This document shows, piece by piece, positions 4,570 through 63,685 of a stretch of DNA of 64,000 bases. This stretch comes from Aurantiochytrium sp. KH105. Its lineage: Eukaryota; Sar; Bigyra; Thraustochytrida; Thraustochytriidae. The DNA is taken from the NCBI GenBank assembly GCA_003116975.1, contig BGKB01000091.1, positions 186,001-250,000 of the forward strand, in the 5' to 3' direction. The position numbers and the translations under genes are program-made. Within the stretch, counting starts at the first letter, position 1. Each line of letters opens with the position of its first letter. A model generated the notes under the pieces. That model was not told where the DNA came from. It did not search any database and worked only from the letters and a program-made list of their open reading frames with translations.

Positions 4570-5322
4570 AATTAATCGACCGATTGACTGTCATCCCCGC
4601 CACGACAAAGAAGAAAAAGAAGAAGAAGAAAAAGAAGAAAGGCAGGCCCTCTCCCTCCCTTCCCCCTCAAGACTTGAGAACTCGTCTGTCTCGCCTGGAA
4701 GCCAACGAAGATTCGATCTCTCCCCTCTGACGCGCCTCCAAACTTGAACCCAATCGCAACCAGCAGCAGCCATGGCAGCTGCAGCCAACCCGTGCAGCCA
4801 ACACACGCGCCTGACAATTCGCATCGCAGAGAGCACGAAACAAACGCTACATGTGCCCTCTTTTCTCCTCTCCTCTCCGCGCGTCCGTCCCGGCCGAGCG
4901 CGCGCCCGCTTCCGTGTCCGCTGCAGGTCGACTTGGTTGGTGCACGCTGCGGCGCGAGCTGCCAGAACGAAGATTCGACTATCGTAAGCAAGCGATACGC
5001 AGGAGACTGCAACTTTCACATCGATTCACTGCCAAATTTTGTCCGTGCCAGGCGAGCAGCTGCAGAAGCAAGCAACAGCAAGCAGCGCCAGCAAGCAAAT
5101 AGCGACCCTGTATGTACGCCGTGCGTACGCAGCTGCTCTCGCTGCCCTGGCAATCGGCCGCGTGCGGCAGTCAGCAGCGCAGGTCCTCGGTGGCCGTTTA
5201 TTTCGCCGCAGCTCGCACGACGCTCAAAACCGGCAGCGCACTGCAAGCGCGCGAGAGCTCGCGAGGGGTTGGTTTCCCCTACGTCGATTGCCTCCACGAA
5301 CGGATCAAAGGCGAGGCGGCGG

Positions 5323-16843: not shown

Positions 16844-19800
16844 TTACTGCTTGGTGTCTCGGAGCTTGCCAGGCTCCTTCATGAGCATGATGCGCATCTC
16901 GGTCATGTCCTCGATGGCATAGCGCACACCCTCACGGCCAAGGCCGGAGTCCTTCACGCCACCATACGGCTGGGAGTCGATGCGGTACGACGGCACATTG
17001 TTAATGACCACGCCGCCGCAGTGCATGTTCTCAAAGGCGTAGTGGGCCTTGGAGAGGTTGTTGGTGAAGACACCCGCCTGAAGACCATAGCGGGAGTTGT
17101 TGACCTCGTCGACGATCGAGGCAAAGTCCGAGTACGGCTCGAGGCAGACGGCGGGGCCAAAGAGCTCCTCGTTGTAAATGGTACAATCGTGCGAAACATT
17201 CTCGAGCACGGTGGCCTCCACGAAGTTCGTGCCCTGCTTGTTTCCACCCGTGAGCAGGTTGGCGCCCTTGTCGGTAGCCTCCTTGATCCACTCTGTGATG
17301 CGATCAGCATCTTTCTCGCTGATGACGGGGCCAAGGAAGGTATCCTCCTCCTTGGGGTCGCCCATTTTGAGACTCTTTACTTTTTCGACAAAGGCGTCCT
17401 TGAAGCGGGAGTAAATGGACTCGTGCACAAAGAGTCGCTGCACAGAAATGCAGCTCTGTCCGCTTTGGTAGAACGCACCCGTGGTGATGGACTGGACGAC
17501 TGTGTCGAGCCCCTCATCGAGATCATCCACAACGCAGGCAGCGTTACCGCCAAGCTCGAGCACGACGTGCTTCTTGCTTGCTTTCGCTTTGAGTTCCCAG
17601 CCGACGGAGGCGGAACCGGTAAAGGAAAGAAGCTTGAAGCGGTCATCGGTCGTGAGAGCATCGCCGGACTCACGCGTGCAAGGCAGCACGGAAAATCCTT
17701 CCTTGGGCATGTTAGGGTCGTTGGCGAGAATCTCGCCCACGAGCAAGGAACCAAGCGGAGTGCGGCTTGCGGGCTTGACGACAAAGGGGCAGCCCGCGGC
17801 AATCGCCGGTGCAACCTTGCTGGCCAAAAGGTTGAGCGGGAAATTGAACGGGGAGATCATGCTGACCGGACCGCGCGGGAAGCGCTTGACGATGCCCTGG
17901 TACCCGTGGGCACGCTTGGCAATGTCCATGTCGCCGGCCTCGCCATACATGCGAACCGTTTCTTCGGCAGCGATTTCAAAGGTCTGCACAAGGCGTTCGA
18001 CCTCGCCGCGAGCGTCACTGATCGCCTTACCATTTTCGATGGTGGTCATCATGGCAAGCTCTTCGCTGCGGCGGCGCGCTTCCCGCGCAACGTTCATGAG
18101 GATCTCCTTGCGCACGTAGTGCGGAAGGGCTGCCATCTTGCGGGCTCCCGTGGTGGAGACCTCGTGGATGGCGGTCTCCATGTCGGACTTGGTTGCGACA
18201 GCCACCTTGCAAAAGACTTCGTTGGTGTGCTTGTCCATCACCTCGAGGTCCTCATTGGCGTACACGGGACGTCCCACGAGGTAAAAGGGGACGCTGTCGC
18301 CCTTGTTGATGCTCCACTTTTCGCTCTCCTTGCTGTCGCTCTGCGATGTGGACTTGTTCTCGCTCTTTTCCGATGTCGAAGCAGACTTTGACTTTGACTC
18401 CGAGGAGGACTTGGTGGCCGAAGAGCTGGAAGCTGATTTCTCTTGCTGGGACTCTTCGCAGCCCTTGGTCTCCGATGTCGAGGAGCGCTCCGAGTTGGAG
18501 CGACGCACCTTGTCAAGACGCTTGGTGCATTCCTCGGAAGCCTCCTTGGAGGCCTCGTCAGCTTCTTCCTTGGACGAGGGAGGAAGGGAGTCTCCGAGGA
18601 GAATGTCTTCGCCAAATTCGTCGACGATGCGACGCAAAATCTCCGAAGCCTCAGATGGCACTTTTTCGAGCATGTCCGAGACCCAGCGGTAGGTGACGGG
18701 GACCTCGACGACGTGGACGCCCTTGGTTCCGACGCAGTGGCGCAGAACGTCGGCAAACTCCTCGGTCTTGGACACGCGATGGCCTTGGGCGCCAAAGGCC
18801 TCGGCGTGCTTGACAAAGTCGGGGTTCCGCAGGTCCAAGTTGTACTCGTCAAAGTTCATGCCCTCTTGCTTCCACTTGATCATGCCGAGAGCGTTGTCGT
18901 TGAGAACGAGCACGGTGATGTTGAAGCCGTACTGGACGGCGGTGGCGAGCTCCTCGCTGTTCATGAGGTAGCCGCCGTCGCCGCAAATGGCGACGACGGG
19001 CTGGTCCGGGCTAACCAGATTGGTGCCGATGGCGTTTGGCAGACCGGCGCCCATAGTGGCCAGGGCATTGTCGAGAAGCACGGTGAGCGGCTCGACAGCC
19101 TTGTAGTAGCGCGCGACCATGACCTTATACAGGCCATTATCGAGGCTAAGAATGGCATCGTCAGGAAGCACCTTGCGCATGTCGGTGATGACGCGGGCGA
19201 CGTTCATGGGGAACTGATCATCATCGGTGCCACGCTGCATGCACTCATCGGTGTACTCTTTGATGCGGCGAAAGGGAGCAGCATCAAAGACCTTGTTGTC
19301 GGCGCGCAGCTTTTCTTTAATTTGCCAGACTGCGTTGGCGCAGTCGCCCACAATCTCGACCTGCGGAAAGTACGTCGAGTCGACGTGCGCGGGATCAAAG
19401 CTGATGTGAATGACCTTTCGGGACGAGGCGCCCGAAGACATGATGAAGGGAGGCTTCTCCGTGGTGTCGTGGCCGACCATGATGATGACGTCGCTAATGT
19501 CGAGAGCGGCGTGGATGTAGTCTTTGGAGCTGATGGCGGCGCATCCGAGAAAGAACTCGCTTCGCTCGTCGACGACACCCTTGCCCATTTGAGTGGAAAC
19601 CACATGAATCTTGAGCTCGTCGACGAACTCGCGAATGGCCCGACGTGCGCGGTGGCGGTTGGCAGCTGCGCCGACGATCATGATGGGTCTCTTTGCATTG
19701 CGGAGGATGTCGACCGCACCGTGCGTGCCCTTTTCGTCGGTGACGGGCCGGCGGACAGGCGTGGGCTCAAAGAGATTGAACTCGGTTTGCATGGAGGCAA

Positions 19801-20305
19801 TATCCTCGGGCAGCTCGAGGAGCGTCGGGCCAGGCTTCTCGGTGGTTGCCTCGCGGAAGGCGCGACGGACCATGGACGGCACGAGGTTGCCGTCGGTGAT
19901 GGTCTTGGCATACTTTGTCAGAGGCTGGTACATGGAGACAATATCAACAATTTGGAACTCGGCCTGTTTGGTGCTACGGATGCCCTTTTGACCCGTGAGA
20001 AAGACGCAGGGCATGCCGCCAAGATGCGCAAATGCCGCCGCCGTGGTAAAGTTTGTCGCTCCGGGTCCGAGCGTGGAGAGAGCGACGGCCTTGACTTGGC
20101 CCGTGAGTCTGCCCACGGTGGCGCAGATGAAGCCTGCGGCCTGTTCATGGCGCGTGAGGATCACCTTGATCTTGCTCTTGCGCAGCGATTCGAGCACGTC
20201 CAGGTTTTCCTCTCCCGGGATGCCCACCACGTACTCGACGCCCTCGTTCTCGAGCGCCTTGACCAGCAGGTCGCTGACCTTGATCTTCGACTTGTCGTCG
20301 CCCAT
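16844..20305 (-). CDS. fusion: acetolactate synthase-like ThDP enzyme + aldehyde dehydrogenase
   Basis: One uninterrupted frame of 1153 residues. Residues 1-560 are a ThDP enzyme of the acetolactate synthase/oxalyl-CoA decarboxylase superfamily: catalytic Glu54 in RHEQAA, central domain about 190-340, and ThDP/Mg motif GDG (442-444) ending in LND (468-470). Residues 575-662 are a Ser/Glu/Lys-rich linker. Residues 663-1153 are an NAD(P)-dependent aldehyde dehydrogenase: PFNFP, FTGSASVG, general-base Glu917 in LELGG, nucleophile Cys952 in GQSC, and EELFGP. A plausible reaction is decarboxylation of a 2-oxo acid to an aldehyde (or aldehyde release) followed by oxidation to the acid, with channelling; the substrate is unknown. 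The start at 20305 (MGDDKSK) matches family N-termini. An upstream Met at 20425 would add a 40-residue Arg/Lys-rich extension that could be a targeting peptide. No intron. Confidence 0.88.
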   Translation of the reverse strand: MGDDKSKIKVSDLLVKALENEGVEYVVGIPGEENLDVLESLRKSKIKVILTRHEQAAGFICATVGRLTGQVKAVALSTLGPGATNFTTAAAFAHLGGMPCVFLTGQKGIRSTKQAEFQIVDIVSMYQPLTKYAKTITDGNLVPSMVRRAFREATTEKPGPTLLELPEDIASMQTEFNLFEPTPVRRPVTDEKGTHGAVDILRNAKRPIMIVGAAANRHRARRAIREFVDELKIHVVSTQMGKGVVDERSEFFLGCAAISSKDYIHAALDISDVIIMVGHDTTEKPPFIMSSGASSRKVIHISFDPAHVDSTYFPQVEIVGDCANAVWQIKEKLRADNKVFDAAPFRRIKEYTDECMQRGTDDDQFPMNVARVITDMRKVLPDDAILSLDNGLYKVMVARYYKAVEPLTVLLDNALATMGAGLPNAIGTNLVSPDQPVVAICGDGGYLMNSEELATAVQYGFNITVLVLNDNALGMIKWKQEGMNFDEYNLDLRNPDFVKHAEAFGAQGHRVSKTEEFADVLRHCVGTKGVHVVEVPVTYRWVSDMLEKVPSEASEILRRIVDEFGEDILLGDSLPPSSKEEADEASKEASEECTKRLDKVRRSNSERSSTSETKGCEESQQEKSASSSSATKSSSESKSKSASTSEKSENKSTSQSDSKESEKWSINKGDSVPFYLVGRPVYANEDLEVMDKHTNEVFCKVAVATKSDMETAIHEVSTTGARKMAALPHYVRKEILMNVAREARRRSEELAMMTTIENGKAISDARGEVERLVQTFEIAAEETVRMYGEAGDMDIAKRAHGYQGIVKRFPRGPVSMISPFNFPLNLLASKVAPAIAAGCPFVVKPASRTPLGSLLVGEILANDPNMPKEGFSVLPCTRESGDALTTDDRFKLLSFTGSASVGWELKAKASKKHVVLELGGNAACVVDDLDEGLDTVVQSITTGAFYQSGQSCISVQRLFVHESIYSRFKDAFVEKVKSLKMGDPKEEDTFLGPVISEKDADRITEWIKEATDKGANLLTGGNKQGTNFVEATVLENVSHDCTIYNEELFGPAVCLEPYSDFASIVDEVNNSRYGLQAGVFTNNLSKAHYAFENMHCGGVVINNVPSYRIDSQPYGGVKDSGLGREGVRYAIEDMTEMRIMLMKEPGKLRDTKQ

Positions 20306-20557
20306 CCTCTGCTCTGCAAGCTTCGTCTTTCCTCGTCGCCTTTTTCGCCTCCAATTCGGTTTTGTTCTGCCCGAGACGCCAAGCCAGAAGCCAAGCCCAG
20401 CTAACTCAAGTTCTGATAAGGTCACAGTGACTCACAGTCAGGACCGTTCGTGTGCGCGGAGAAAATTTCGTTCGCTCTGTCGATCATCCAAGTCCTCCAC
20501 CCAGGGTCTGTGCGCCACCTGCTCCGCTGAGTCTTCTTCCTCCTGTCACCCGCTCCC

Positions 20558-23747: not shown

Positions 23748-24574
23748 GGTGTCTGTAGTACTACACGTATAGCCTCGCGACGGGAGCTCGTTCACTCACG
23801 CACGCGCGCTAGCGGCGTCGGCCGTGGGGCGGAGCGGACAAACAACTCTACGCTCGGCTCGGCTCGGCTCGGCTTGGCTCAGCTTGACGTGGCTTGGCAG
23901 GTTGCGAGTTTGCTTGCTGCCGCTACGCGATCGGAGTCCGCGCTTGCAGTCTCTGTCAGTGCAGACTTGTCAGGCCTATCTTGCCCCCGCCCTACGGGGT
24001 CCTACGCGGTACCTACGGCTCGCAGCGCCACGCAGGGACAGACGGTCGGACGACCCTGCGCCGTCTCGGTCCCCGTCGCCTTTCGCCCCGCCGTGCCGCG
24101 CGCGATTTGAGCATGTATTCTTGTAATTATTGCAGCCGGTGCAAATTAGGAAAGGAGCAGAGACTTCAGATACAAGACTTTCGATGAAGGAAGATAAAGA
24201 TACAGAGGAGGTTCAGGACGGAGCAAAACCTGGCTTTTTTTCTTTTCCTCCTTCTTCTTCTTTCTCTTTTGCGCGCAAGGATAGAAAGGAGAAAGCTTCC
24301 GCCGGCCAGGTTGGTTTCTTTCCGGCCTCAGCGCCGCGACTCTGTCGTGCGCAGGAGGAGAAACAGGGCGTGGCGAATGTGGCGGCTGGCTGGCCGGTGG
24401 TGCGCGAAATCGAGGGCGAAGAGGCGAAGTGGAGCACGGGATTTGGTGAGGTGAGGTGAGGTGAGGTGGTATGGGTTACAATGTCATGCCGATCACTGGC
24501 GCACACCGAAGGTGTGCGCGAATTCGAGGACACCTCACGGGGACATCAAAAAGAGAGGCGAGGGAGGACAAAAA
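23748..24574. other. intergenic region upstream of the MFP gene
   Basis: Holds a CGGCT pentanucleotide run at about 23851-23881 and a short GGTGA run at about 24447-24468 just before the tandem array. No gene is recognised. Confidence 0.55.
23851..23881. repeat. (CGGCT)n pentanucleotide repeat
   Basis: Five to six CGGCT/TGGCT units 100 bases upstream of the MFP start. Confidence 0.75.
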
Positions 24575-26612
24575 ACAGAAAGGTGCGAGTATCGAAATGC
24601 CGCCTGCGAGCGGGGCGACCGGTGCGGAAAGATATACATTTCCTGTCCGCGAGTCGTAGCTCACCTTGAATCAGTCAAAATTCGGGCTTCTGTGAAATTA
24701 CTCACTGACGCCGTGGCTCACATTGCACCAATCTGCTCGCCATGCTTATAAAGGCATCTCTCTTCTGAGATGGTGCAAAAAGGGATCCTCGATCGTTCCG
24801 CAGACTTTTACGCGGGCAAAAAAAATGAAGGTGCGAGTATCGAAATGCCGCCTGCGAGCGGGGCGACCGGTGCGGACAGGCACTACCACGGCTAGTAGTA
24901 GGGTGCCCTGTCCACGGGTCGTAGATCCCCTTAAACCAGTCAAAATTGGGACGTCTGAGGCAGAACTCACTGACGGCGTGGCTCACATTGCACAAGCCTC
25001 CTCGCCATGCTTATAACGGCATTTCTCTTCTGAGATGGTGCAAAAAGGGATCCTCGATGGTTCCGCAGACTTTTACGCGAGCAAAAAAAAAGAAAGATGC
25101 GAGTATCGAAATGCCGTCTGCGAGCGGGGCGACCGGTGCGGACAGGCACTACCACAGTTGGTAGTAGGGTGCCCTGTCCACGGGTCGTAGATCCCCTTGA
25201 ATCATTCAAAATTCGGGCTTCTGTGAAATGACTCACTGACGCCGTGGCTCACATTGCACCAACCTGCTCGCCATGCTTATAAAGGCATCTCTCTTCTGAG
25301 ATGGTGCAAAAAGGGATCCTCGATGGTTCCGCAGACTTTTACGCGAGCAAAAGAAAAGAAAGATGCGAGTATCGAAATGCCGTCTGCGAGCGGGGCGACC
25401 GGTGCGGACAGGCACTACCACGGTTAGTAGTAGGGTGCCCTGTCCACGGGTCGTAGCTCCCCTTGAATCAGTCAAAATTCGGGCTTCTGTGAATGACTCA
25501 CTGACGCCGTGGCTCACATTGCACCAACCTGCTCGCCATGCTTATAAAGGCATCTCTCTTCTGAGATGGTGCAAAAGGGGATCCTCGATGGTTCCGCAGA
25601 CTTTTGCGCGAACAAAAAAAAAGAAAGATGCGAGTATCGAAGTGCCGTCTGCGAGCGGGGCGACCGGTGCGGACAGGCACTACCACGGCTAGTAGTAGGG
25701 TGCCCTGTCCACGGGTCGTAGATCCCCTTAAACCAGTCAAAATTGGGACGTCTGAGGCAGAACTCACTGACGGCGTGGCTCACATTGCACAAGCCTCCTC
25801 GCCATGCTTATAAAGGCATTTCTCTTCTGAGATGATGCAAAAAGGGATCCTCGATCGTTCCGCAGACTTTTACGCGAGCAAAAAAAAAGAAAGATGCGAG
25901 TATCGAAATGCCGCCTGCGAGCGGGGCGACCGGTGCGGACAGGTATGGATTTCCTGTCCGCGAGTCGTAGCTCCCCTTGAATCAGTCAAAATTCGGGCTT
26001 CTGTGAATGACTCACTGACGCCGTGGCTCACATTGCACCAATCTGCTCGCCATGCTTATAACGGCATCTCTCTTCTAAGATGGTGCAAAAAGGGATCCTC
26101 GATGGTTCCGCAGACTTTTGCGCGAGCAAAAAAAATGAAGGTGCGAGTACCGAAATGCCGTCTGCGAGCGGGGCGAAGCCGCGGACAGGTATGGAATTTC
26201 CTGTCCACGGGTCGTAGCTCCCCTTGAATCATTCAAAATTCGGGCTTCTGTGAAATGACTCACGGACGCCGTGGCTCACATTGCACCAACCTGCTCGCCA
26301 TGCTTGTAAAAGCATCTCTTTACTGGAATGGTGGAAAAGGGGGTCCTTGGTGGTTCCGCAGACTTTTGCGCGAGCAAAAAAAGAAGGTGCGAGTATCGAA
26401 ATGCCGCCTGCGAGCGGGGCGACCGGTGCGGACAGGTATGGAATTCCTGTCCGCGAGTCGTAGCTCCCCGTAAACCATTCAAAATTCGGACTTCTGTGGA
26501 AGGACTCGCTGACGGCGTGGCTCACATCGCACGAATCTAATCACCCAGCTTGTAAAGGCATCCTTCTCTTGGGATGGTTCCTAGAATAGTTCTCGATGGT
26601 TCCTCTGACGCA
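24575..26612 (-). repeat. eight-copy ~247-266 bp tandem array with SL/Sm-RNA-like units
   Basis: A GCGAGTATCGAAATGCCG-like anchor recurs at about 24582, 24834, 25097, 25363, 25628, 25892, 26141 and 26388. Minus-strand order per unit: TTATAAG box; conserved ~23-base block (GTGCAATGTGAGCCACG then SCGTCA); donor GTGAGT; 17-25 variable bases pairing back on the donor region; AATTTTGA (fits Sm consensus RAU4-6GR); ~25 bases; hairpin GGACAGG...CCTGTCC; T-tract. Donor complements (ACTCAC) lie at 24700, 24965, 25231, 25496, 25762, 26010 and 26258; Sm-like sites at 24675, 24940, 25206, 25472, 25737, 25986, 26233 and 26479. Copy 8 has lost the donor, and copies 7-8 the TATA box. Frames crossing units are not proteins. 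The array lies between the divergent MFP and OSCA-type genes. Confidence 0.85.
24964..25282 (-). ncRNA. candidate SL- or snRNA-like gene, representative unit (copy 3; about 25083-25260 transcribed)
   Basis: Representative unit of the array, read on the minus strand. TATA-like TTATAAG 25282-25276; conserved block ending at 25237; GTGAGT 25236-25231; stem GTGA/TCAC with one flanking A-A mismatch and further TC/GA and GGC/GCC pairs; AATTTTGA 25213-25206; long hairpin about 25181-25137; T-tract 25096-25083. If transcription starts about 20-25 bases below the TATA-like box, the leader would be about 20-25 nt and the RNA about 150-175 nt, an SL-RNA size. An ordinary U-snRNA or a non-transcribed satellite are alternatives. 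No expression data; inference from layout only. Confidence 0.4.
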
Positions 26613-27830
26613 TTGTCGTTCTCCGCTCAAGGGCCAACACTCGCTTCATCGACTCCCGCCAGGCTGCTCTGCTCAGCCGACGTCAAGTTGAACTCACAGT
26701 CTATCCTGGGAGGCTCTCTCCCCTGCCCTATTCGCTTGCGCGACTTGTGTACTAGCCTGTACTTCCATAGACGCGGCCTCGTTTCGACCCTGGCAAGCTC
26801 GAACCGCCCTTTCCCGCTGCGAACCGCAGCCTCGCCTTCGTAGACACCTTCGTCAACATCGCAAATGCGCGCGTCGCGTCTCCGACCAGCCCTGGGGAAG
26901 GAAAGTGTGCAAAACCAGCGCAAGTGTAGTATATACCAATCTCGGCAACCCAGCACGGCACGCAGCCCCGCCGCCTGCAGATACCGGCCCGCGCCCGCCG
27001 CTGTTGCTGCCTCGCGCGCGGGCTCTCGCCGCCGTCGGAGGCGGCGCCGGCGCGGCTCTTCGCCGTCTCTCCGCTCGCGAGCTTGCTGGCGGGCTACAGC
27101 TCGAGCGAGGCGGCGAGCCCCAGCGGCACCGCCGTTAAAGATCTACGGGTGACCTGGGAGCTCAGGGTAGGACCCCCCTAGGCCCCAACCAGGCCCTCGG
27201 AGGCTTGTTTTCTGCGAGTGCACACTTCGCTTTTGTACTTCTTGCGGCGCGCGCCGGGTTTTGTGTGTCTGATCTGCGGCAGCCATCCGTCCTCCCGTGC
27301 ACGCGACGCTGCAGCACAGCTCGCGCAGCTCGCGCAGCTCGCGCAGCTCGCGCAGCTGCAACTGGCGGAGCGCCGGCACGGCTGGCGACGCCCCGACGGA
27401 CGCGGCCTGGCTCGCCTTGGCTTGCTTGGTTCGAGCAACCGGAGGTCCCTGATCCGACCGCCTGCTCTTACCTCACGCGTCGCAAGTTGAATTTTTGCGC
27501 GTAAAGCCTCCATACCGCCGCCGCGAGGGGCGATCAGCCAGCGCGTGCAGGTTGGTTGGTCGCTCCGCGCGGCGACGAGTATACTACGCAATCTACAGCT
27601 TCCTCCTTGGTAGTAAGAATGAGAGGGTGGTAAATGGCGCTGGCAGTGCCGGCGTAAAAGCGGCTACGCTGGACCGCCAGAGGATGTCTGACTGCGCGGT
27701 CCCAATCTCTGCGGTGCTTGTGCGTGCTTTTACTATACATGAACTCGTCTTCCGCCAGGAGAGAAAAAGGCCTGCTCGCCGTCGATGCGGCGCAGACACC
27801 TAATTACTCGCGTCCGCAAGCTTTGCGAGA
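26613..27830. other. intergenic region upstream of the first OSCA-type gene
   Basis: Contains a 9-base direct repeat at 27318-27356. Small frames on both strands are Ala/Arg/Ser-rich and unsupported. The last few hundred bases should hold the promoter of the gene at 27831. Confidence 0.55.
27318..27356. repeat. (AGCTCGCGC)n minisatellite
   Basis: Four or more perfect tandem copies of a 9-base unit, 470 bases upstream of the OSCA-type gene. Confidence 0.85.
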
Positions 27831-30800
27831 ATGAGTTGGCGAAACTGGCTCTGGCGGAGCGATGCCGCCGGAGACGAAGCGAATGAGGCGTCCGGTAGCG
27901 CCAGTCGAGAACGCAGCGACGCGGCGTCCGCAGCAGCGTCATCGAGCGTGCAGCCTCTCAGCGTCCAGGCGGACTCGGACTCAGATCAGGATGATGATCG
28001 CAGCGAGGACGGCCATGATGATCACGACGTCGAAATGGGATCCTCCAGCAACGATGATGACGTATCCACGGTACCTGCCGCGCGGGGCGATGCCGGTGGC
28101 CAACGACAAGTCGCAGTGGAATTCCTTGACGGCCCGGTAGGTGGTCTTGGTCGGCGCGTCGTTGAGCGCAATGAGGACGTCGATACCCCCGAAGAAATTG
28201 AGGCCTCGTTGCGTCGCAAAGGCGCCAATGAGGTCGTTGAGCTTGCCGCGCATGGCGGGAAAATGCAACTCAACGTTGATCTACGCAGCGAATACACCAA
28301 GCCCGTGGTTGAGCTCGCGCTCAAGTACCGCCAGCAGCACCACCCTAGCGATCAGGACGGCAACCCTCTGACCTTTCGGGACACCCCAACGGGTATGTTT
28401 GATTTGCCTTGCAAAAAGAGCAAAGACCCGGGCCTTATTCGCTTTGGAGCCGGCATCTCGAGCTATTTTAAGCTTCTCAAGTGGATGGGCATCATGTACT
28501 TGACTCTCTTCGTGCTACAGATTCCTATTATCGTGATGAACGTCAACGCGGGGTCCCACTACGACGATGCGGTCATGACCATCACACGCACCACGCTGGG
28601 CAACTTGTATCGCGAGCCTCAGGGCAATCTGTCCGAGGCCGAGGTCGTCGAGATCTATGAGGTTAACCTGCCACCGGCCTGCACGGATGGCCGGTGCACG
28701 GTGAGCCGCGACAAGCTCGTCTTTGCATATGGTATTATGGACGCCGTCACGACCCTCGTATTCCTCGTATTTGTTGCGCTGGGAAAACATTTCGTTTTGC
28801 AAGAGCGCCGCAAATTCTCCAAGGAGGTTCTCAAGGTCGAGCACTACACGGTCCAGGTGGAGAAGATCCCGGAAGACTGCACGGCGGAGGTGATCCAGAC
28901 ACACTTTGAAAACCTTGTTGGGGGCGCAATCCATGACGTCCAGCTTGTCCAGGGATCAGGAAATTCGATTGCCCTTTGCGTGCGGCGGGGACGGCTCATG
29001 ACAAAACTTGCGCGTGCGGATGCACGACGCAAATACCTTGATGACATCAACGCTCCTCTGCTGAAGCGCGACAAGGCCGAGGACGAGTTTGACGCCATCT
29101 TTGAGCGTGTCAAGCAGCTCGACGAGGAGGCAAGCCGCAGCGCAGAGGCTGGTGCCGCGCTCTTTGCTTTCGTTACCTTTGAAGACCAGCGAGATCGCGC
29201 ACGGTGCCTTAAAATGTACCGTCGCGTCACCTTTTCCCTACATCAGGATCCAGAACTCAAACTCAATGGCGAGCACGAGCTTAAGGTCACTGCCGCGCCC
29301 CCGCCATCAACCTTGCTCTGGGAAAATAACGAGGTCAGTCGAACATCGCGCCATGTCCGCGCGGCGGGAACCACGCTCATGATGGCCATCCTGCTCTTTC
29401 TCACTATCGTCATCAGCTTTGCCTCCGAGCCCTACAAGATTTCGAAATCGCTTGCCGACGTAGCTTCAGGGCTGTCATCGTACGACACGGTTTGCGACGG
29501 CGTCTTTGCCGTGGCTAGCTCCTTCGAGGAGGCGGTGGCCATTGCCGACGACCCGTCCGAGCAGGACAGCTTCAGCATGGTCAATCGTCCCGATCTTTCG
29601 CTGCCGGACTGCCTCTGCGAGGCCGTGACATCGGGCATCACTTTTCCGAATGGAACTACGCCCGAAGGTCTTTTTGTTGGCGATGGCTATTGCGCCGAGT
29701 ACTGGAGTGATCGTACGTATGCGATTGCGGTCCAGGTATTTGTGAGCTTTGCAACGCTTGTCATGAACACCATCATCTTCTTCTTTCTCACGGGCACGGC
29801 GTACATGATGAAGTACACCAGCGTGGTGCGTCGCGAGCTCGACATCATGCGTCGCCTCTTCATCACCACATATTTGAACACCGGCCTCGTGGTCCTTGTC
29901 GTCAATGCTGATTTCCAGAGCGTGCTGGATACAACATTCAACTCCTTTGGACAGTGGCTTTTTCAGGGCAACTTTGACGACTTTACACAGGAGTGGTTTC
30001 GTGTTGTTGGCGTCGAGATCATCATGTTTGCAGCGCTTAACGTTCTTGCGCCGCACATTTATCCGCTCGTGCTTCAGGCCATCAACTCCCTATACCGCCG
30101 CTACCACATGCCCATCTCGCAGTCTGAGCTGAACGAAATGTACCTCGGGCCGGATTTTGTTCTTTCGTATCGCTATTCGCAGGTGCTTATGATGTGCTTT
30201 TTCCTCATGACGTACTCGACGGGCATGCCCGTGCTCTACATGTTTGGCATCATTTCCATTCCTGTCACCTTTGCCGTCGACAAGTTCTTCTTTACGCACC
30301 TCTGTCGCACGCCCGCCGAATTCTCGGGCGTCCTGGCCACCTGGGCCAACGAGATTCTCCAATGGGCGGCCGTTGTTCACCTCGTCTTTGGCATCTGGAT
30401 GCTCACGAGCCCGTACATTTTCCCGCAGAGCTCGAGCGACATTGCCCTCGGTGCGCTCGCCTCAATCACCGACACGGCGTCGGATGAGGAGCTCGCTGTC
30501 GTCTCCAACATTACGGCCTCGGGGATTACGGTGGTGGACACGAGCCTCATCAACGACATTATCTCCCGTGCTTTGCAGAACCAAGCCATCCCAAACTTGT
30601 TGCTTCTCATTTTCTTTTTTGCGTGGAAGATTCTCCGCAACTTTCGCTACGGACTCGTCATCCTCGAAAAGGCTCGCTTGTACACGCGCGACGCCTTTGC
30701 TCGTGTCTTCAAGAACGACTCGTTGTCGAGTCTGCTCGACGAGTCTTTCGAGGATGATCGTCAGCTCACCTTTGAGCAGGCCCTCGACGCGGGGCTCATC

Positions 30801-31004
30801 TCCGGCATCCGGTCGTACTACATTCTGGCCAACCCCAAGTACGCGCGCGCTTTCCACCGCCGCGACGAGGATCACGACGACACTAGCGAGAAGAGTTTCC
30901 TTGACATTTTGCGCCAGCGGGCCACCGAATCTGACGGCGTCAACGCGCTCTTCTCGCTGACCGGGAACTCCTTCATGTCGGGCCGCAAGTCGCGCACCTC
31001 CTAA
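27831..31004 (+). CDS. OSCA/TMEM63/CSC1-family ion channel-like protein, copy 1
   Basis: 1057 residues. The family forms mechanically or osmotically gated cation channels (OSCA in plants, TMEM63 in animals, CSC1 in yeast). N-terminal 1-90 is acidic and Ser-rich. First membrane segment at about 206-232 after a FGAGISSYFK motif, second at about 295-325. A cytosolic domain from about 335 to 500 has an RRM-like fold signature (YTVQVEKIPEDC... and LFAFVTFEDQRDRARC) and ends in APPPSTLLWEN, equivalent to the 'APEP.DI.W.N' element before the conserved 7TM domain. The 7TM region spans about 510-960 with GPDFVLSYRYSQ and FAVDKFFF. A cytosolic tail follows. The Met at 27831 is the first in frame. A paralogue follows on the same strand after 1.1 kb. 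Confidence 0.82.
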   Translation: MSWRNWLWRSDAAGDEANEASGSASRERSDAASAAASSSVQPLSVQADSDSDQDDDRSEDGHDDHDVEMGSSSNDDDVSTVPAARGDAGGQRQVAVEFLDGPVGGLGRRVVERNEDVDTPEEIEASLRRKGANEVVELAAHGGKMQLNVDLRSEYTKPVVELALKYRQQHHPSDQDGNPLTFRDTPTGMFDLPCKKSKDPGLIRFGAGISSYFKLLKWMGIMYLTLFVLQIPIIVMNVNAGSHYDDAVMTITRTTLGNLYREPQGNLSEAEVVEIYEVNLPPACTDGRCTVSRDKLVFAYGIMDAVTTLVFLVFVALGKHFVLQERRKFSKEVLKVEHYTVQVEKIPEDCTAEVIQTHFENLVGGAIHDVQLVQGSGNSIALCVRRGRLMTKLARADARRKYLDDINAPLLKRDKAEDEFDAIFERVKQLDEEASRSAEAGAALFAFVTFEDQRDRARCLKMYRRVTFSLHQDPELKLNGEHELKVTAAPPPSTLLWENNEVSRTSRHVRAAGTTLMMAILLFLTIVISFASEPYKISKSLADVASGLSSYDTVCDGVFAVASSFEEAVAIADDPSEQDSFSMVNRPDLSLPDCLCEAVTSGITFPNGTTPEGLFVGDGYCAEYWSDRTYAIAVQVFVSFATLVMNTIIFFFLTGTAYMMKYTSVVRRELDIMRRLFITTYLNTGLVVLVVNADFQSVLDTTFNSFGQWLFQGNFDDFTQEWFRVVGVEIIMFAALNVLAPHIYPLVLQAINSLYRRYHMPISQSELNEMYLGPDFVLSYRYSQVLMMCFFLMTYSTGMPVLYMFGIISIPVTFAVDKFFFTHLCRTPAEFSGVLATWANEILQWAAVVHLVFGIWMLTSPYIFPQSSSDIALGALASITDTASDEELAVVSNITASGITVVDTSLINDIISRALQNQAIPNLLLLIFFFAWKILRNFRYGLVILEKARLYTRDAFARVFKNDSLSSLLDESFEDDRQLTFEQALDAGLISGIRSYYILANPKYARAFHRRDEDHDDTSEKSFLDILRQRATESDGVNALFSLTGNSFMSGRKSRTS

Positions 31005-31142: not shown

Positions 31143-32109
31143 TGTGGTGCTACGCACGTGCACCTATACACGTACGTACTACCCGTGCTGGAAACTCCAT
31201 CACTCGTCTGCGACCACATCGATCGAGCGAGCGAACGAATGCAATTCCACCAGGCTCGCACTGCAGTCGCGGCCCGGCCGCTGCAGGCCGCATCTACTCG
31301 CGCTCGCTCGTTCTCGCCTCGCCTCGCCTCGAGGTTCTCGCGCCGCGCGCCTGCGGTCCCGGGAACCGCGCTCGCGCTGGAAAAGGGTGAACGGCCTTCC
31401 TTCCGCAGGTGGCGCGTGCACAACTTCTTCGACCGCCTTGGGCAAGGCCCGCGCCAACTTCGATCTGGCCTTCGAGCCCGAGCCGTGGCGCCTTGGCATT
31501 CATTCTTCTGGCCTCGCACGGCATGGCATGGCGCGGCGCGCATGGCATGACGCGGCACGGCGCGGTATGTGTGCACGGCATGCGAGGTTCGACGTGCGAG
31601 CGCGTGCGCGTGTAAGGTAAGACAAAACACGACCAAGACGAGACAAAACACACAAACTCCCAAACGCGACCTCGAGGCAGCAGACCTCGATCGGCACGCG
31701 AGGGCTGGCCGGGCCCCGGGCTGCCAGAGCGGGCGCGGGCGAACAGCGTCGGAGTGGTCTGCGCGTTGTGCGCGTGTGCGTCGAGCGGGCAAGCGCGAGT
31801 CAGTCTCGAGAGACGCCGCCGCGCAAGCGAGGGATTTCAAATTCAAATCCAAGTCATCCATCTCCATCCATTTCCCTCGCCGGGGCGCGCGCGCGCACAA
31901 CGTGCGGAGGGAGGAGAGGAGGAGGCCGCGACGCGCGGCAGCAGCTGCTGCCGCTACTGCTGCTGGCACGCCGCAGGCTTGCGTCGGAGAACGAAGGAAG
32001 GAAACAGACGAGAGGAGGCAAGAGGAGACGAGACGAGCAAGCAGAGCGAGCTAGTACTACTACTCTAGGCTTACTACCAGCATTTCGCCTACACAAGAAG
32101 TAGAACCAA

Positions 32110-35061
32110 ATGCGTTCCCCAGAGGATGACGACCACGGCGAGGACCCCCGCGTGGCGCCCGCCACGAGCCTGAGCACTGACGTCCGACGTATCGGCGGCC
32201 TGGACGAGGCGGAGGAGGCGCGGACACGCCAGGTCCTTGTGGAAATCTTTGGCGCCCAGCTCGGAGGCCTCGGTGTCCGCGTGGTCGAAAGCACGGACCC
32301 AACAAGCCTTGCCGTACGGGAAAAGCAGGCACAAGCTCTGCAGGACCTCGAAGCCTATGAAGTCGCTGAGTTAGTGCGCTCGCTCCACATTGCGCACCTA
32401 AATCAGGATCTCTTGGCCGAGTACCAGCCTCCAGACCGCGCCAAGGCCATCGAATATCGAGCTCTGCACCACCCGCATCAGGATGAAAGTACAAAGAGCC
32501 TTGGCTGGATCTCGACGCCCACGGGAAGCTTTTCAGTCCCTTGCATTGGACGCAAACGGGATCTTATTCGCTTCGGCTCAGGCATCTCGAGCTACTTTAA
32601 GTACCAGAAGCTTCTCGTGCTCATGTACATTTGCCTCTTCCTCATGCAACTTCCCGTGATGCTCACGAACCACTACGTTGGCGGAAACTTCAAAGGAGCT
32701 CAGATCCCGCTCGGCTCGCTCTCGCTCGGCAACATGCACCAGCCTTATGATAATACCACAGACCGGAATAACTCCACCAACTACTACGCGGTCGATACCC
32801 GTATCCTTTGCGCTAGCGATGTACCATCCGAGCTCAATACGACAAAGAACTGCTTTTCGGACAGCGACAAGCTGTCCACCTTTTACGGCGTTATGGACGC
32901 TCTGACAGGCGTCGTCTTCTTGCTTTTTGTCGGATGGCTCAAATATGGTACCTCAAAGGAACGGAAGCGCTTTCGGCAGCGTGTACTCAAGCTTGAACAC
33001 TACTCTGTTATGGTCAAGTCTGTACCGCATGATTGCACGGTGGAAAAGCTCAGGGATCATTTCTCGAACCTGTGTAAAGGCGCGCCCATTTACGACGTTC
33101 AGATCGTTTCTGCTACGGGCGACGCGCTCTCGCTCTGCGTCCAACGTGGCAAACGCATTCAGGATATGGCACGCGCCGACGCGCATCGTAGACGAGCCCA
33201 CCATGGGGTGGCAGACGAGCACGAAAGCGCAGAAGTAGAAGAAGGACAAGAAGAAAAGGACAACGAAAAGAGCCGTAGCTACGCCGATAGACGGTTCCAT
33301 CGCCTCTATGACGAAGTCATCCGTCTCGACAAGATGGCTGCTGAGCGTGCAACGCACGGCGCGCCGCTCTTTGCCTTTGTCACCTTTGAAAAGGAAAGCG
33401 ATCGGGAGCGTTGTCTTTCGCTCTACAACATGTTCCAGTGTACTCCGGGCCAGCACGCGGAACTTCGCTTGGAAGGTCATCCGCTCAAGGTCAGCGCAGC
33501 CCCTCCTCCGAGCACGCTCTTGTGGGAGAATCATGAATTCGATTCCCGCAAGCGCCGCATTCGTCAGTTTGGCACTTTGTTCCTCATGCTCGTTTTGCTC
33601 TTGATCACGGTGGCCATCAATTACTTTTCAGAGCCCTTCAAGCTGTCTCGCGTCTTTGCGCAATTTGCTAGCGGCTCGAGCGCCTCAGAGCCCTGCAAGG
33701 GCGCCTTTGTGGGCGTCACCGATGTGACTACCGCCCTGGATATTGCAAAGAACCTCACCGCGGCTGGTCTGGACATACCAGACGAGACGCGGTCGGATTT
33801 TACCTATCTTGACTGCCTATGCGAGAGCTCCTTCACGGGCGCGCTTCCGTTCAGTATGAGTGACCTGGGCGGCGAGTGCAGCGCGTACATGGCGAGTCTA
33901 GGCCGTTCCGTGGGACTTCAGGTCCTGGTCTCCTTCTTGACCCTTCTCGTCAATACGGCCGTCTTCCTTACGCTGTCCGAGACGGCTGTCTTTCTGCACC
34001 ACTCTTCGGTCGTTGCTCGCGAGATGAGCATTCTGCGTCGTCTCTTTGTGACATCGTACATTAACGTTGCGCTACTCATTCTCATTGCCAATACCGACTT
34101 TGCAAGCACAACGGAGACGGAGTTCTCTGCGGACGCGGAGAGATTCTTTGGCAATGGCAGCTTTACTGATTTTTCTGCCGAATGGTACCGCGTTGCCGGC
34201 GCCGAGGTCACCCTGCTGGCCTTGCTGAACATCATAGCGCCGCATTTCTACCCTCTGCTCCTCGCAACGTACAATGCAGCACGTAGGCGCTTCGGCACTC
34301 CCATTTCTCACGCAGAGCTCAAAGAAATGAGTCTCGGACCTGATTTCGTGCTCAGCTATCGCATCTCCCAGGCTCTTGTGATGACTTATCTGGTCATGAG
34401 CTACGGGACGGGTCTTCCTGTGCTCTACCCGATTGGAGCCATGTGTGCCATGATGTCCTTTGCTGTAGACAAGCTCTTCTTCACCAAAATCTGCCGCACG
34501 CCGGTCGAGTTTTCCACGACCATGCAGCGCTGGGGCAACAATGTCATGGAGTGGGCCATTATACCGCACATTCTCTTTGGCACTTGGATGCTCTCGTGCC
34601 CGGATATTTTTCCTTCCTCTTCCGAATCTCAATTCTCGGATTGGACCGTGTACAGGAATTTGCACGATTCAGGCGGTGTCTTTCAGCAGGCCGCTCAGCG
34701 TTTTACGCGTGTGAGCGCGATTCCGAATATGCTCTTACTCTTTTTCTTTTTGGGATGGCGCGTCTTTACCCTTTTCGGATCTGCAGCCTCTCGCATCGCC
34801 AAAGCCATCTACTTTCGCATCGAGCATGTATTTTCGTACTGGCTGGGCGACGATGCCTTTACGACCCGTCAGAATGAGACATTGACATTTGAACCTCTTA
34901 CCATTTCCGAAGCCATCAATCAGAACAAGCTCAGTGGGATCAAGTCTTACTTTATCCTCGAAAACCCGCGCTATCAGCGGTACTTTCCGGATTTGCATCA
35001 AGAACGCGCTCTGCACGACGAGCTGCGCTCCACTGCCCCCGGAATTGATGTTGAACCCTAG
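32110..35061 (+). CDS. OSCA/TMEM63/CSC1-family ion channel-like protein, copy 2
   Basis: 983 residues, clear tandem paralogue of the preceding gene. Shared blocks, in order: IRFGSGISSYFK before the first membrane helix, LFAFVTFEKESDRERC, SAAPPPSTLLWEN, GPDFVLSYRISQ, FAVDKLFFTKICRTPVEFS, and GIKSYFILENPRY near the end. It differs by a shorter N-terminus, a charged His/Glu/Lys insertion in the cytosolic domain (about residues 365-395) and divergent extracellular loops. Same predicted topology: two N-terminal membrane helices, RRM-like cytosolic domain, 7TM channel domain. The two proteins could form hetero- or homodimers; that is inference from family structure. Confidence 0.82.
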   Translation: MRSPEDDDHGEDPRVAPATSLSTDVRRIGGLDEAEEARTRQVLVEIFGAQLGGLGVRVVESTDPTSLAVREKQAQALQDLEAYEVAELVRSLHIAHLNQDLLAEYQPPDRAKAIEYRALHHPHQDESTKSLGWISTPTGSFSVPCIGRKRDLIRFGSGISSYFKYQKLLVLMYICLFLMQLPVMLTNHYVGGNFKGAQIPLGSLSLGNMHQPYDNTTDRNNSTNYYAVDTRILCASDVPSELNTTKNCFSDSDKLSTFYGVMDALTGVVFLLFVGWLKYGTSKERKRFRQRVLKLEHYSVMVKSVPHDCTVEKLRDHFSNLCKGAPIYDVQIVSATGDALSLCVQRGKRIQDMARADAHRRRAHHGVADEHESAEVEEGQEEKDNEKSRSYADRRFHRLYDEVIRLDKMAAERATHGAPLFAFVTFEKESDRERCLSLYNMFQCTPGQHAELRLEGHPLKVSAAPPPSTLLWENHEFDSRKRRIRQFGTLFLMLVLLLITVAINYFSEPFKLSRVFAQFASGSSASEPCKGAFVGVTDVTTALDIAKNLTAAGLDIPDETRSDFTYLDCLCESSFTGALPFSMSDLGGECSAYMASLGRSVGLQVLVSFLTLLVNTAVFLTLSETAVFLHHSSVVAREMSILRRLFVTSYINVALLILIANTDFASTTETEFSADAERFFGNGSFTDFSAEWYRVAGAEVTLLALLNIIAPHFYPLLLATYNAARRRFGTPISHAELKEMSLGPDFVLSYRISQALVMTYLVMSYGTGLPVLYPIGAMCAMMSFAVDKLFFTKICRTPVEFSTTMQRWGNNVMEWAIIPHILFGTWMLSCPDIFPSSSESQFSDWTVYRNLHDSGGVFQQAAQRFTRVSAIPNMLLLFFFLGWRVFTLFGSAASRIAKAIYFRIEHVFSYWLGDDAFTTRQNETLTFEPLTISEAINQNKLSGIKSYFILENPRYQRYFPDLHQERALHDELRSTAPGIDVEP

Positions 35062-62373: not shown

Positions 62374-62944
62374 ACAGACACATACCTCTTGACTCAATGA
62401 CGAGAATGTTTTCCCCGAATTCTGCTCTTGCTTTGCTTTGCTTTGCTATCTTTTCCATTGTCGTGCTTGTTTGTTCCGTTTCATGATTGACGAGGCGCTT
62501 TGCTTGAGTTTGATTTATTTTTCTATGCGACAACCAATCCGACTTTCGCTTCAAAATGGTGATCACTTTTACTGGAGAAGCCAAGGCACATTCGCTGTCA
62601 CGTCCATCAAATGGATCTTGCAAGAGTTGCACCACTGCAGTGCCTCGACCAATGCCACAGTGCCTGTGCAGAGCCAGTGCCAGTGCCAGTGTCATGCCGA
62701 TGTGTCTGGCTGTGAGAAAGTAGTCACCGTCACGGTTGTAGCTCAGGCTGACATCAATCTCAAATCCAAGTCGTTCTTTCTTTATTTCTTTCGTAGTCTT
62801 TCGTTCTTTCTTTTGTTTTCAAGTTTGTTCTGTGTCCGAGTCGTTGCCACACCAAACAGCCAGGGGTGGCGCAGCGCTGCAGGGCTCGCAGCGCAGCACA
62901 GCGCAGCGCAGCGCAGCGCGAGACACGTGACGCGTGGCGGGGCG
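62374..62944. other. intergenic spacer, eIF3L to CBP20
   Basis: 571 bases with a CTTTG run (about 62431-62447) and a GCAGC/CAGCG run (about 62885-62920) just upstream of the CBP20 start. No other gene recognised. Confidence 0.6.
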
Positions 62945-63685
62945 ATGGCGACGCTTCTTGAACAAACACGGCCGCGGCCACTGCGCGAGTACTTTGACAA
63001 GACCGTCTTTTCGTCGCTTGCGGCTCATCGGGCAGCCAAGGCCAAGTCCAGCACCGTCTATGTCGGCGGCCTCTCCGAGTTCACCATGGAGCAGCAGCTG
63101 CATGCGCTCTTTTCCATGTGCGGTACCGTGCAACGAGTCATCATGGGTCTGCACCGTGTTGATCGCAAACCTTGCGGCTTTTGCTTTGTCGAATTTGAGA
63201 AGCGACAAGCGGCCCTCGATGCTGAGCAGATTATCTCTGGACTTGAGATTGACGGCAAGCAAATCAAGGTTGAAATCGACCCCGGCTTCACCGAGGGCAG
63301 GCAATTCGGAAGAGCACGTAGTGGTGGCCAAATGCAGGATGAGCGTCGCCAGCATGCATTCGGATTTGGAGGGGCTCCCTCTTCTGTGGCGCCACCGCGT
63401 GGTCGCCGTGGCGGACGCAACAGGAACAGGGACACGCGAGGCCCTCGGTCGCGTGGGCGCGACTTTCCCCGCCAGCCCGACGTGCCTCTTGCGCGCACAT
63501 CGCATGTTGCGCCGCCATCGGCTCAGCCTCCAGTTGCAGAGCCTCCTGCTGGCACGAAGCGCTCGCGTTTGGAGTCAAATGATGGGCCTGACTCCGATGA
63601 TGAGGAGGAGCTCCGTCGTCGGAGAGATCGACGCAGGCGGAGAAGACGTCGCGACGATGATTCGGACTCGGATGACTCCGACTAA
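62945..63685 (+). CDS. NCBP2: nuclear cap-binding protein subunit 2 (CBP20)
   Basis: 246 residues from ATG 62945 (human 156). Binds the 7-methylguanosine cap of Pol II transcripts with CBP80. Single RRM: RNP2 in STVYVGGL and RNP1 in PCGFCFVEF. The CBP20-specific C-terminal hook DPGFTEGRQFGRARSGGQMQ, which folds over the cap, is very well kept. Aromatic Tyr in LREYFDK and in VYVGG occupy the places of the cap-stacking tyrosines. After residue ~130 comes an added Arg/Gly-rich then Pro-rich and Arg/Asp-rich tail. Upstream in-frame Mets from 62438 give Ser/Cys-rich low-complexity and are not used. Confidence 0.93.
   Translation: MATLLEQTRPRPLREYFDKTVFSSLAAHRAAKAKSSTVYVGGLSEFTMEQQLHALFSMCGTVQRVIMGLHRVDRKPCGFCFVEFEKRQAALDAEQIISGLEIDGKQIKVEIDPGFTEGRQFGRARSGGQMQDERRQHAFGFGGAPSSVAPPRGRRGGRNRNRDTRGPRSRGRDFPRQPDVPLARTSHVAPPSAQPPVAEPPAGTKRSRLESNDGPDSDDEEELRRRRDRRRRRRRRDDDSDSDDSD

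What the first reader, a model, noticed from the sequence alone, without database searches (positions are those of the whole stretch)
24575..26612. Tandem array whose units have the layout of spliced-leader or other Sm-class small RNA genes
Read on the minus strand, units carry the same order of elements at fixed spacing: TATA-like box, invariant ~23-base block, perfect GTGAGT donor, stem-loop over the donor, Sm-type AATTTTGA 17 bases on, 3' hairpin, T-tract. This is the plan of SL RNA genes in trypanosomes, dinoflagellates and nematodes, which are also tandemly repeated. I know of no described spliced leader in this type of protist.
Basis: partly seen in the sequence, partly recalled or inferred. 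Interest (0 to 1): 0.82.

Follow-up and report, generated by a model that had tools for sequence, protein, structure and literature searches.

The report
Tandem array of small structured RNA genes
A protist chromosome carries eight head-to-tail copies of a small gene that most likely makes a folded non-coding RNA from a U6-like promoter; it resembles a spliced-leader gene, but the evidence points more to a new, otherwise ordinary, small RNA family than to a spliced leader.

Summary
Window 24570-26603 (minus strand) holds eight units spaced 246-266 bases, with TATAAG (6 of 8), GTGAGT (7 of 8), AATTTTGA, a 3' hairpin and a T-tract (8 of 8 each). The other haplotype has four. Two distant paralogue loci hold five B and two C units over both haplotypes. 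The putative leader was found nowhere else in the 76 Mb assembly.

The spliced-leader interpretation is not supported, though not excluded. The first 27 bases, leader and donor together, are complementary to the last ~28 before the T-tract. That 3' strand is at least as conserved as the leader; the stretch with the "Sm" motif is, outside the apical hairpin, the part of the RNA body least alike between A and B units. CCATCG 45 bases before the TATA box also lies 44-46 bases before it at both U6 loci, not at U4 or U2. This suggests RNA polymerase III, whose products have no cap to donate.

Best reading: a new family of small structured non-coding RNAs with a U6-type promoter, in plan like Dictyostelium Class I RNAs. 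Against me: 8 of 12 A units fold best with a local hairpin over the donor, and 3 of 5 B units read GCAAGT, a possible alternative donor, there. Spliced leader: about 0.13. RNA-seq would decide.

The parts
24570..26603 (-). whole tandem array: 8 units, each upstream block + TATA-like box + RNA-like body + T-tract; edges coincide with complete cassettes
26385..26530 (-). RNA-like unit 1 (GCGAGT instead of GTGAGT; TACAAG instead of TATAAG)
26139..26284 (-). RNA-like unit 2 (TACAAG instead of TATAAG)
25892..26036 (-). RNA-like unit 3, short apical hairpin; minimum-energy fold has the local donor hairpin
25626..25788 (-). RNA-like unit 4, long apical hairpin; minimum-energy fold has the long-range terminal helix
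25361..25522 (-). RNA-like unit 5, long apical hairpin
25095..25257 (-). RNA-like unit 6, long apical hairpin
24829..24991 (-). RNA-like unit 7, long apical hairpin
24581..24726 (-). RNA-like unit 8, short apical hairpin, last of the array
25586..25591 (-). CCATCG of unit 5, 45 bases upstream of TATAAG (same element 44 and 46 bases upstream of TATAAG at the two U6 loci)
25541..25546 (-). TATAAG of unit 5, 24 bases before the unit start
25365..25391 (-). unit 5, 3' strand GCTCGC A GACG ... CTCGC, complementary to the 5' strand; highest A-to-B identity of the segments measured
25349..25360 (-). unit 5, T-rich tract just after the 3' strand (terminator-like)

Best explanation
The array is a set of tandem gene copies for one small non-coding RNA of about 145-170 nt, transcribed from the minus strand from a U6-type promoter (upstream CCATCG element 45 bases before a TATA box, start ~24-28 bases after the TATA) and ended at the T-tract, most likely by RNA polymerase III. 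The RNA's first ~27 bases pair with its last ~28 bases to form a long, interrupted terminal helix. Inside it sits a second helix (GGGG/CCCC, then CGACY/RGTCG) carrying an apical hairpin free to vary in length and sequence. The 'leader' is conserved because it is one strand of that helix. The RNA most likely works as an abundant scaffold or protein-binding RNA, with dosage raised by tandem copies that vary by unequal exchange (8 against 4 units in the two haplotypes; 3 against 2 at a paralogue locus). Shown: array, promoter-like elements, complementarity, partial covariation, family and copy numbers. Inferred: transcription, polymerase, start and end, unequal exchange, and the role as a protein-binding RNA.
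For: (1) Three loci of one family, each with a counterpart contig at 89-93% identity over the flanks; array edges are whole cassettes. (2) RNAalifold, given no structure, returns the long-range terminal helix on 17 A+B units and on the 12 A units alone. The 30 pairs of that structure are standard in 92.9% of 507 cells, against 28-51% when slid by 1-3 columns; 18 cells change on both sides (shuffled mean 8.5, 0 of 500 as high), covariation score 0.151 (shuffled 0.120, 0 of 500). The 18 pairs of the terminal helix alone: 93.8% of 306 cells, slid 19-49%. The rival local hairpin over the donor, as I wrote it: 58.0% of 119 cells. (3) 55 G-U against 16 A-C cells on this strand. (4) A-to-B identity: 3' strand 0.81, 5' strand 0.69, stretch with the Sm-like motif 0.46, apical hairpin 0.31. 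(5) CCATCG 45 bases before TATAAG in 7 of 12 A units and before TATAGG in B1 and b1; 44 and 46 before TATAAG in the two U6 loci; not seen upstream of U4 and U2. (6) T-run of 4 or more in 12 of 12 A, 4 of 5 B, 0 of 2 C units; TATA in 10 of 12 A, 4 of 5 B, 0 of 2 C: both missing in C, as in pseudogenes. (7) The model built without the C units still finds both of them (E 8e-7 and 9e-6). (8) Folding z-scores -3.8, -3.1, -2.9.
Against: No transcript evidence at all. The minimum-energy fold has the donor in the long-range helix in only 7 of 17 units; in 8 of 12 A and 2 of 5 B units it is in a local pairing, and constraining to the terminal helix costs 1.3-6.5 kcal/mol in those 8 A units, 7.2 and 16.0 in those 2 B units, and 3.5 in unit 1. 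Among A units alone no pair has a two-sided change (0 of 40). For the terminal helix alone the shuffles are not beaten (percentage paired 74 of 500, covariation score 63 of 500), since many pairs vary little. For the whole structure the number of pairs with a two-sided change (4) equals the shuffled mean (3.9) and further pair types (14) fall below it (16.0). The shuffle control ignores relatedness, and the slid control favours a structure taken from the same sequences. In 5 of 5 B units column 24 changes G to A, which breaks a pair of the helix but in 3 of 5 makes GCAAGT, a possible GC donor. The CCATCG link rests on one U6 gene in two haplotypes, was noticed after looking, is absent from 5 of 12 A units as a CCATCG+TATAAG pair, and the loose pattern has 7 control hits. 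T-tracts also follow SL RNA genes of Dinozoa (PMC9399869 passages), so they do not discriminate.
Confidence: 0.62

Rival explanations
1. Spliced-leader RNA genes: a Pol II small RNA whose ~20-base 5' exon (AATGTGAGCCACGSCGTCA or one base more) is joined to mRNAs at GTGAGT, with AATTTTGA as Sm site.
Against: Leader and donor are complementary to the 3' end and conserved with it; U6-type upstream element and spacing, whereas an uncapped Pol III RNA could not give a cap; no leader copy elsewhere in 76 Mb at up to 2 mismatches; pyrimidine-AG tracts before 21 ORF starts are no commoner than in shuffles (2 of 21 against a mean of 3.35; 0 of 13 against 1.04 in the overlapping set); the Sm-like motif is AAACTT-GTTGG in 5 of 5 B units.
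Confidence: 0.13
2. Another Sm-class or spliceosomal-type small nuclear RNA made by Pol II, not a leader donor (GTGAGT accidental).
For: AATTTTGA in 12 of 12 A units followed by a 3' hairpin; U1 and U5 were not found by their Rfam models, so some U RNAs of this genome are unassigned.
Against: Rfam at E up to 5 gives only sR47 (E 3, far below its gathering score, at 26602-26653, outside the units). By my reading of the aligned units there is no U1-type 5' end and no U5 loop in them (motifs recalled, no call). Sm-like motif not kept in B.
Confidence: 0.12
3. A short tandem satellite or decayed non-autonomous element that keeps a promoter and hairpins by descent only, without function.
For: Copy number differs between haplotypes (8 and 4); some units have lost TATA or T-tract; no exact match to the 3' block in viral contigs or to the 5' block in prokaryote genomes, and eukaryote relatives could not be searched.
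Against: Three loci found, each with a counterpart in the other haplotype; unequal conservation by segment that follows a structure; strand-specific wobble pairs; constant 24-base TATA spacing in 14 of 14 units that keep TATA, of 19 examined.
Confidence: 0.1

Closest known systems
Dictyostelid Class I RNAs (PMC7919456, passages read)
   Same: A stem joins the 5' and 3' ends; conserved motif beside it; variable middle; upstream promoter element (DUSE) about 60 nt before the start; T-runs downstream of many of them, from which the authors suggest Pol III; many gene copies; known from dictyostelids.
   Different: Class I RNAs are 42-65 nt in D. discoideum and have an 11-nt motif; here 145-170 nt, a longer interrupted terminal helix, another motif, a TATA box, and head-to-tail arrays. 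No homology shown; likeness of plan only.
Spliced-leader RNA genes (eustigmatophytes PMC8570151 section 13; Perkinsozoa PMC9399869 passages)
   Same: Small RNA units with a GT donor after a conserved 5' block, a T-rich Sm-like motif in some, stem-loops, a T-tract in Dinozoa, and tandem repeats in one Perkinsozoan agent.
   Different: No leader found outside the array; leader complementary to the RNA's own 3' end; U6-type upstream element; no acceptor signal at the ORF starts tested; 8+4 copies against 24-239 candidate SL genes in the eustigmatophytes.
U6 snRNA genes of the same genome (loci L021, L022)
   Same: CCATCG element, TATAAG 44-46 bases on, T-tract.
   Different: The RNA itself is unrelated; U6 gave one hit on each of two contigs.
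Y RNAs / nematode stem-bulge RNAs (recalled, no call)
   Same: Pol III external promoter, ends paired in an interrupted stem, short T-tract.
   Different: No useful Rfam match of the array to any family; no TROVE (Ro60) domain found in this genome.

Membership tests
Spliced-leader RNA | 5' exon found at the 5' ends of many mRNAs | not testable with these tools
   No RNA data. The leader pattern was found only in the 12 array units of the genome, which by itself neither proves nor refutes.
Spliced-leader RNA | 5' splice donor after the leader | tested here: met
   GTGAGT in 11 of 12 A units; GCAAGT in 3 of 5 B units. Sequence only; use as a donor not shown.
Spliced-leader RNA | single-stranded Sm site conserved in the intron part | tested here: inconclusive
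   AATTTTGA 12 of 12 A, AAACTT-GTTGG 5 of 5 B; it lies in or beside a small predicted hairpin in many units. Sm binding not testable. Some published SL RNAs lack the motif (PMC8570151).
Spliced-leader RNA | Pol II transcript with a cap to donate | tested here: inconclusive
   Upstream element and spacing match U6 (Pol III), not U4 or U2; polymerase not shown directly.
Spliced-leader RNA | acceptor sites (pyrimidine tract-AG) before genes | tested here: inconclusive
   2 of 21 ORF starts at 12/16 pyrimidines or more, shuffled mean 3.35; 0 of 13, shuffled 1.04. No excess, but no positive control for acceptors in this genome, and ORF starts are mechanical.
Pol III gene with U6-type external promoter | upstream element at fixed distance from TATA, shared with U6, and T-run terminator | tested here: met
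   CCATCG+TATAAG at 45 in 7 of 12 A units, CCATCG+TATAGG in B1 and b1; T-run in 12 of 12 A and 4 of 5 B; one U6 gene (two haplotypes) is the only comparator.
Dictyostelid Class I RNA | 42-65 nt, conserved 11-nt motif next to the 5' stem, DUSE | tested here: not met
   Units are 145-170 nt long. The 11-nt motif and DUSE letters were not compared; no useful Rfam match. Plan alike, not a member.
Spliceosomal U1, U2, U4, U5, U6 | match to the Rfam covariance model | tested here: not met
   None in the array; U2, U4 and U6 lie elsewhere; U1 and U5 not located.
Y RNA | Ro60 (TROVE domain) partner in the genome | tested here: not met
   0 candidates for PF05731 in six frames; the control rang in 1 of 14 genomes. 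Introns could hide a split gene.

The most novel reading that the evidence does not exclude
The array is the SL RNA locus of a protist in whose group my searches showed no described spliced leader, with a leader that can switch between a hairpin over the donor and a long-range helix with the RNA's own 3' end; the paralogues would be a second leader type with a GC donor.
Probability: 0.1. Interest if true: 0.85.

Novelty: new member of a known kind. Interest (0 to 1): 0.42.

Why it matters
If the best reading holds, this is a structured RNA gene family without an Rfam match, with a readable promoter and three loci, in a protist genome where U1 and U5 also escaped the Rfam models: a compact system for learning the Pol III promoter of this lineage and what the RNA binds. 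If the spliced-leader reading held, it would add a lineage to the scattered list of trans-splicing organisms and change how transcript starts in it are annotated. RNA-seq of the organism would settle which, at little cost.

Tried and rejected
Rfam scan of the window at gathering score and of 24500-26700 at E up to 5: nothing useful. tRNA scan: none. U5 and U1 models on the genome: no match, but the first look is filtered and the 14 control genomes rang in 0, so absence is not shown. Pattern CCATCGNGN{36,38}TATAWR on the genome to find further Pol III genes: 18 rows, of which 7 are array units and 3 are U6 rows; the other 8 rows (7 places) are about the control count of 7, and Rfam found nothing at the 7 loci scanned. 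In one haplotype U4 has CATCGCG nearer its TATA; the other haplotype lacks it, so dropped. Viral contigs (3' block) and prokaryote genomes (5' block): no exact match. Telomerase RNA, RNase P/MRP, SRP, 7SK and vault RNA were considered from recalled motifs only and not pursued beyond the Rfam scans. Naming the organism: not possible with these tools. Size (76 Mb holding paired haplotypes at the loci compared), 57.7% G+C in the window and long open frames would fit a thraustochytrid such as strain CCAP_4062/3 (38.7 Mb, 57% G+C; start of abstract seen in the listing), but this is a guess. Paper searches for a spliced leader in thraustochytrids or labyrinthulomycetes gave nothing relevant by their listings; also searched. 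PMC8163842 was opened and holds the term only in its reference list. Rows dropped: the truncated copy L028_4850 from all structure counts; the 2 C units from alignments A1 and A2 and so from the structure counts (17 of 19 units used). In the per-segment identities my TATA segment was cut a few bases off, so I quote no value for it.

Full report
WHAT IS THERE. The window is G000:C91:186001-250000 of a 76.0 Mb, 367-contig assembly. TRF reports one array, 24642-26436, period 266. Anchored on its blocks the array runs from 26603 down to 24570 on the minus strand and has 8 units, spaced 246-266 bases. Each unit is a compact cassette: an upstream block like GGAACCATCGAGGATCCCTTTTTGCACC; TATAAG; a body of 145-163 bases beginning GCAATGTGAGCCACGSCGTCAGTGAGT in most; AATTTTGA; a hairpin that is either short or long; GCTCGCAGRCGGCAYTTCGATACTCGC in most; then a T-tract. 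'Invariant' and 'perfect' are slightly too strong: unit 1 has GCGAGT, units 1 and 2 have TACAAG in place of TATAAG, position 16 is G or C, and CCATCG itself is kept in 5 of 8 window units (alignment).

HAPLOTYPE AND FAMILY. Contig C79 carries the same neighbourhood at 91-93% identity with 4 units, so it is the other haplotype of the place. The leader+donor pattern with up to 3 mismatches occurs 12 times in the genome, all in these two arrays, control 0; the leader alone with up to 2 mismatches gives the same 12, control 0. The 3' block with up to 3 mismatches occurs 18 times, control 0: the 12 array units and 6 places in two paralogue loci. The paralogue loci are B (C20:538 kb, counterpart C131:176 kb, 93% identical over 9 kb) and B/C (C20:570 kb, counterpart C254:3.8 kb, 89-90% over the flanks). 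B and A units are 67-69% identical over ~250 bases. Copy number differs between haplotypes there too (three units on C20 against two on C254).

STRUCTURE. RNAalifold on 17 A+B units (A1) and on the 12 A units (A2), given no structure, pairs the first 27 bases with the last 28: TGTGAG/CTCGCA, CG/CG, CGTC/GACG, GTGAGT/GCTCGC (one pair fewer in A1), then GGGG/CCCC and part or all of CGACY/RGTCG. Counted over A+B, 92.9% of 507 cells are paired against 28-51% for slid partners; 18 cells change on both sides against a shuffled mean of 8.5; the number of pairs with such a change (4) does not exceed the shuffled mean (3.9). For the terminal helix alone it is 93.8% of 306 cells, slid 19-49%, but the shuffle control is not beaten; within A alone there is no two-sided change. 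The shuffles ignore relatedness and the slides favour a structure taken from the same rows, so I call the covariation modest. Unit 1's GCGAG turns a U-G pair into C-G; 4 of 5 B units turn U-A into C-G at column 5, and 4 of 5 turn U-G into U-A at column 27. On the minus strand 55 cells are G-U and 16 are A-C, which favours the minus strand as the RNA strand. The rival local hairpin over the donor, as I wrote it, is formed by 58.0% of 119 cells. Against my reading: by minimum energy the donor is paired locally in 8 of 12 A and 2 of 5 B units; constraining to the terminal helix costs 1.3-6.5 kcal/mol in those 8 A units, 7.2 and 16.0 in those 2 B units, 3.5 in unit 1, 1.4 in B1, and nothing in A4, A7, a3, b1 and B3. 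The two folds share strands (GTGAG and CTCGC each occur twice), so the RNA may be bistable; that is inference.

CONSERVATION. A-to-B identity by segment: upstream block 0.67, 5' strand (leader+donor) 0.69, stretch with the Sm-like motif 0.46, inner helix 0.80 and 0.72, apical hairpin 0.31, 3' strand 0.81; among A units the 5' and 3' strands are 0.95 and 0.96. The Sm stretch is 0.91 among the five B units. A spliced leader predicts a conserved exon; it does not predict a still more conserved complementary 3' strand.

PROMOTER. U6, U2 and U4 genes of this genome were found, each on two contigs that match each other at 92-95%. U6 has CCATCGCG, kept in both haplotypes, 44 and 46 bases before TATAAG. 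In the family CCATCG stands 45 bases before TATAAG in 7 of 12 A units (4 in the window, 3 on C79) and before TATAGG in B1 and b1. U4 has TATATAAG without the element and U2 has neither. The loose pattern has 7 control hits genome-wide and the motif was noticed after looking, so the link is suggestive. With the T-tract just after the 3' strand it points to Pol III; T-tracts alone do not, since SL genes can have them.

SPLICED-LEADER TESTS. Leader elsewhere in the genome: none found. Pyrimidine-rich tract ending in YAG before 13 starts picked by eye in the window: 0 of 13 at 12/16 or more, shuffled 1.04; before 21 mechanical ORF starts found when the window and six held loci were scanned, an overlapping set: 2 of 21 against 3.35. 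I have no positive control for acceptor shape here, so this is weak. The Sm-like motif is fixed in A but reads AAACTT-GTTGG in 5 of 5 B. In favour of SL, B units read GCAAGT where A reads GTGAGT (3 of 5), and that change breaks a pair of the terminal helix; this is hard on my reading and is why SL keeps 0.13. Trans-splicing is published for eustigmatophytes, which are stramenopiles (section 13 of PMC8570151), so whether 'none in this kind of protist' holds depends on the exact group, which I could not name.

VERDICT. A real tandem family of small structured RNA genes, most likely non-coding RNAs made from a U6-type promoter. In plan it is nearest to dictyostelid Class I RNAs (PMC7919456 passages): ends joined by a stem, conserved motif beside it, variable middle, upstream element, T-run. 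By length it is no member of that family. Protein-scaffold function is inference. A model built from A and B units alone also recognises the two C units (E 8e-7 and 9e-6 over 129,784 bases), which lack both TATA and T-tract and look like pseudogenes.

Noticed in passing
window 16844-20431 (-): One 1195-aa open frame joins a thiamine-pyrophosphate enzyme (N, M, C domains) to an aldehyde dehydrogenase.
   Followed up: no
window 27804-31004 and 32104-35061 (+): Two neighbouring PHM7_cyt genes (10TM; the CSC1/TMEM63 likeness is recalled), probably a tandem duplication; the first is the nearest long frame on the high side of the array.
   Followed up: no
genome G000: U1 and U5 snRNAs were not found by their Rfam models while U2, U4 and U6 were, each on two contigs; U1/U5 may be divergent here, or lost to the filter.
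   Followed up: partly
L028, unit start at 4851 (C20): A truncated extra copy with TATA and the 5' block only (GCAACGTGGGCCACGCC) follows the B1 unit.
   Followed up: partly
window 62393-63685 (+): RRM protein whose N-terminal part looks like the nuclear cap-binding protein CBP20 (name recalled; Pfam gives only RRM_1).
   Followed up: no
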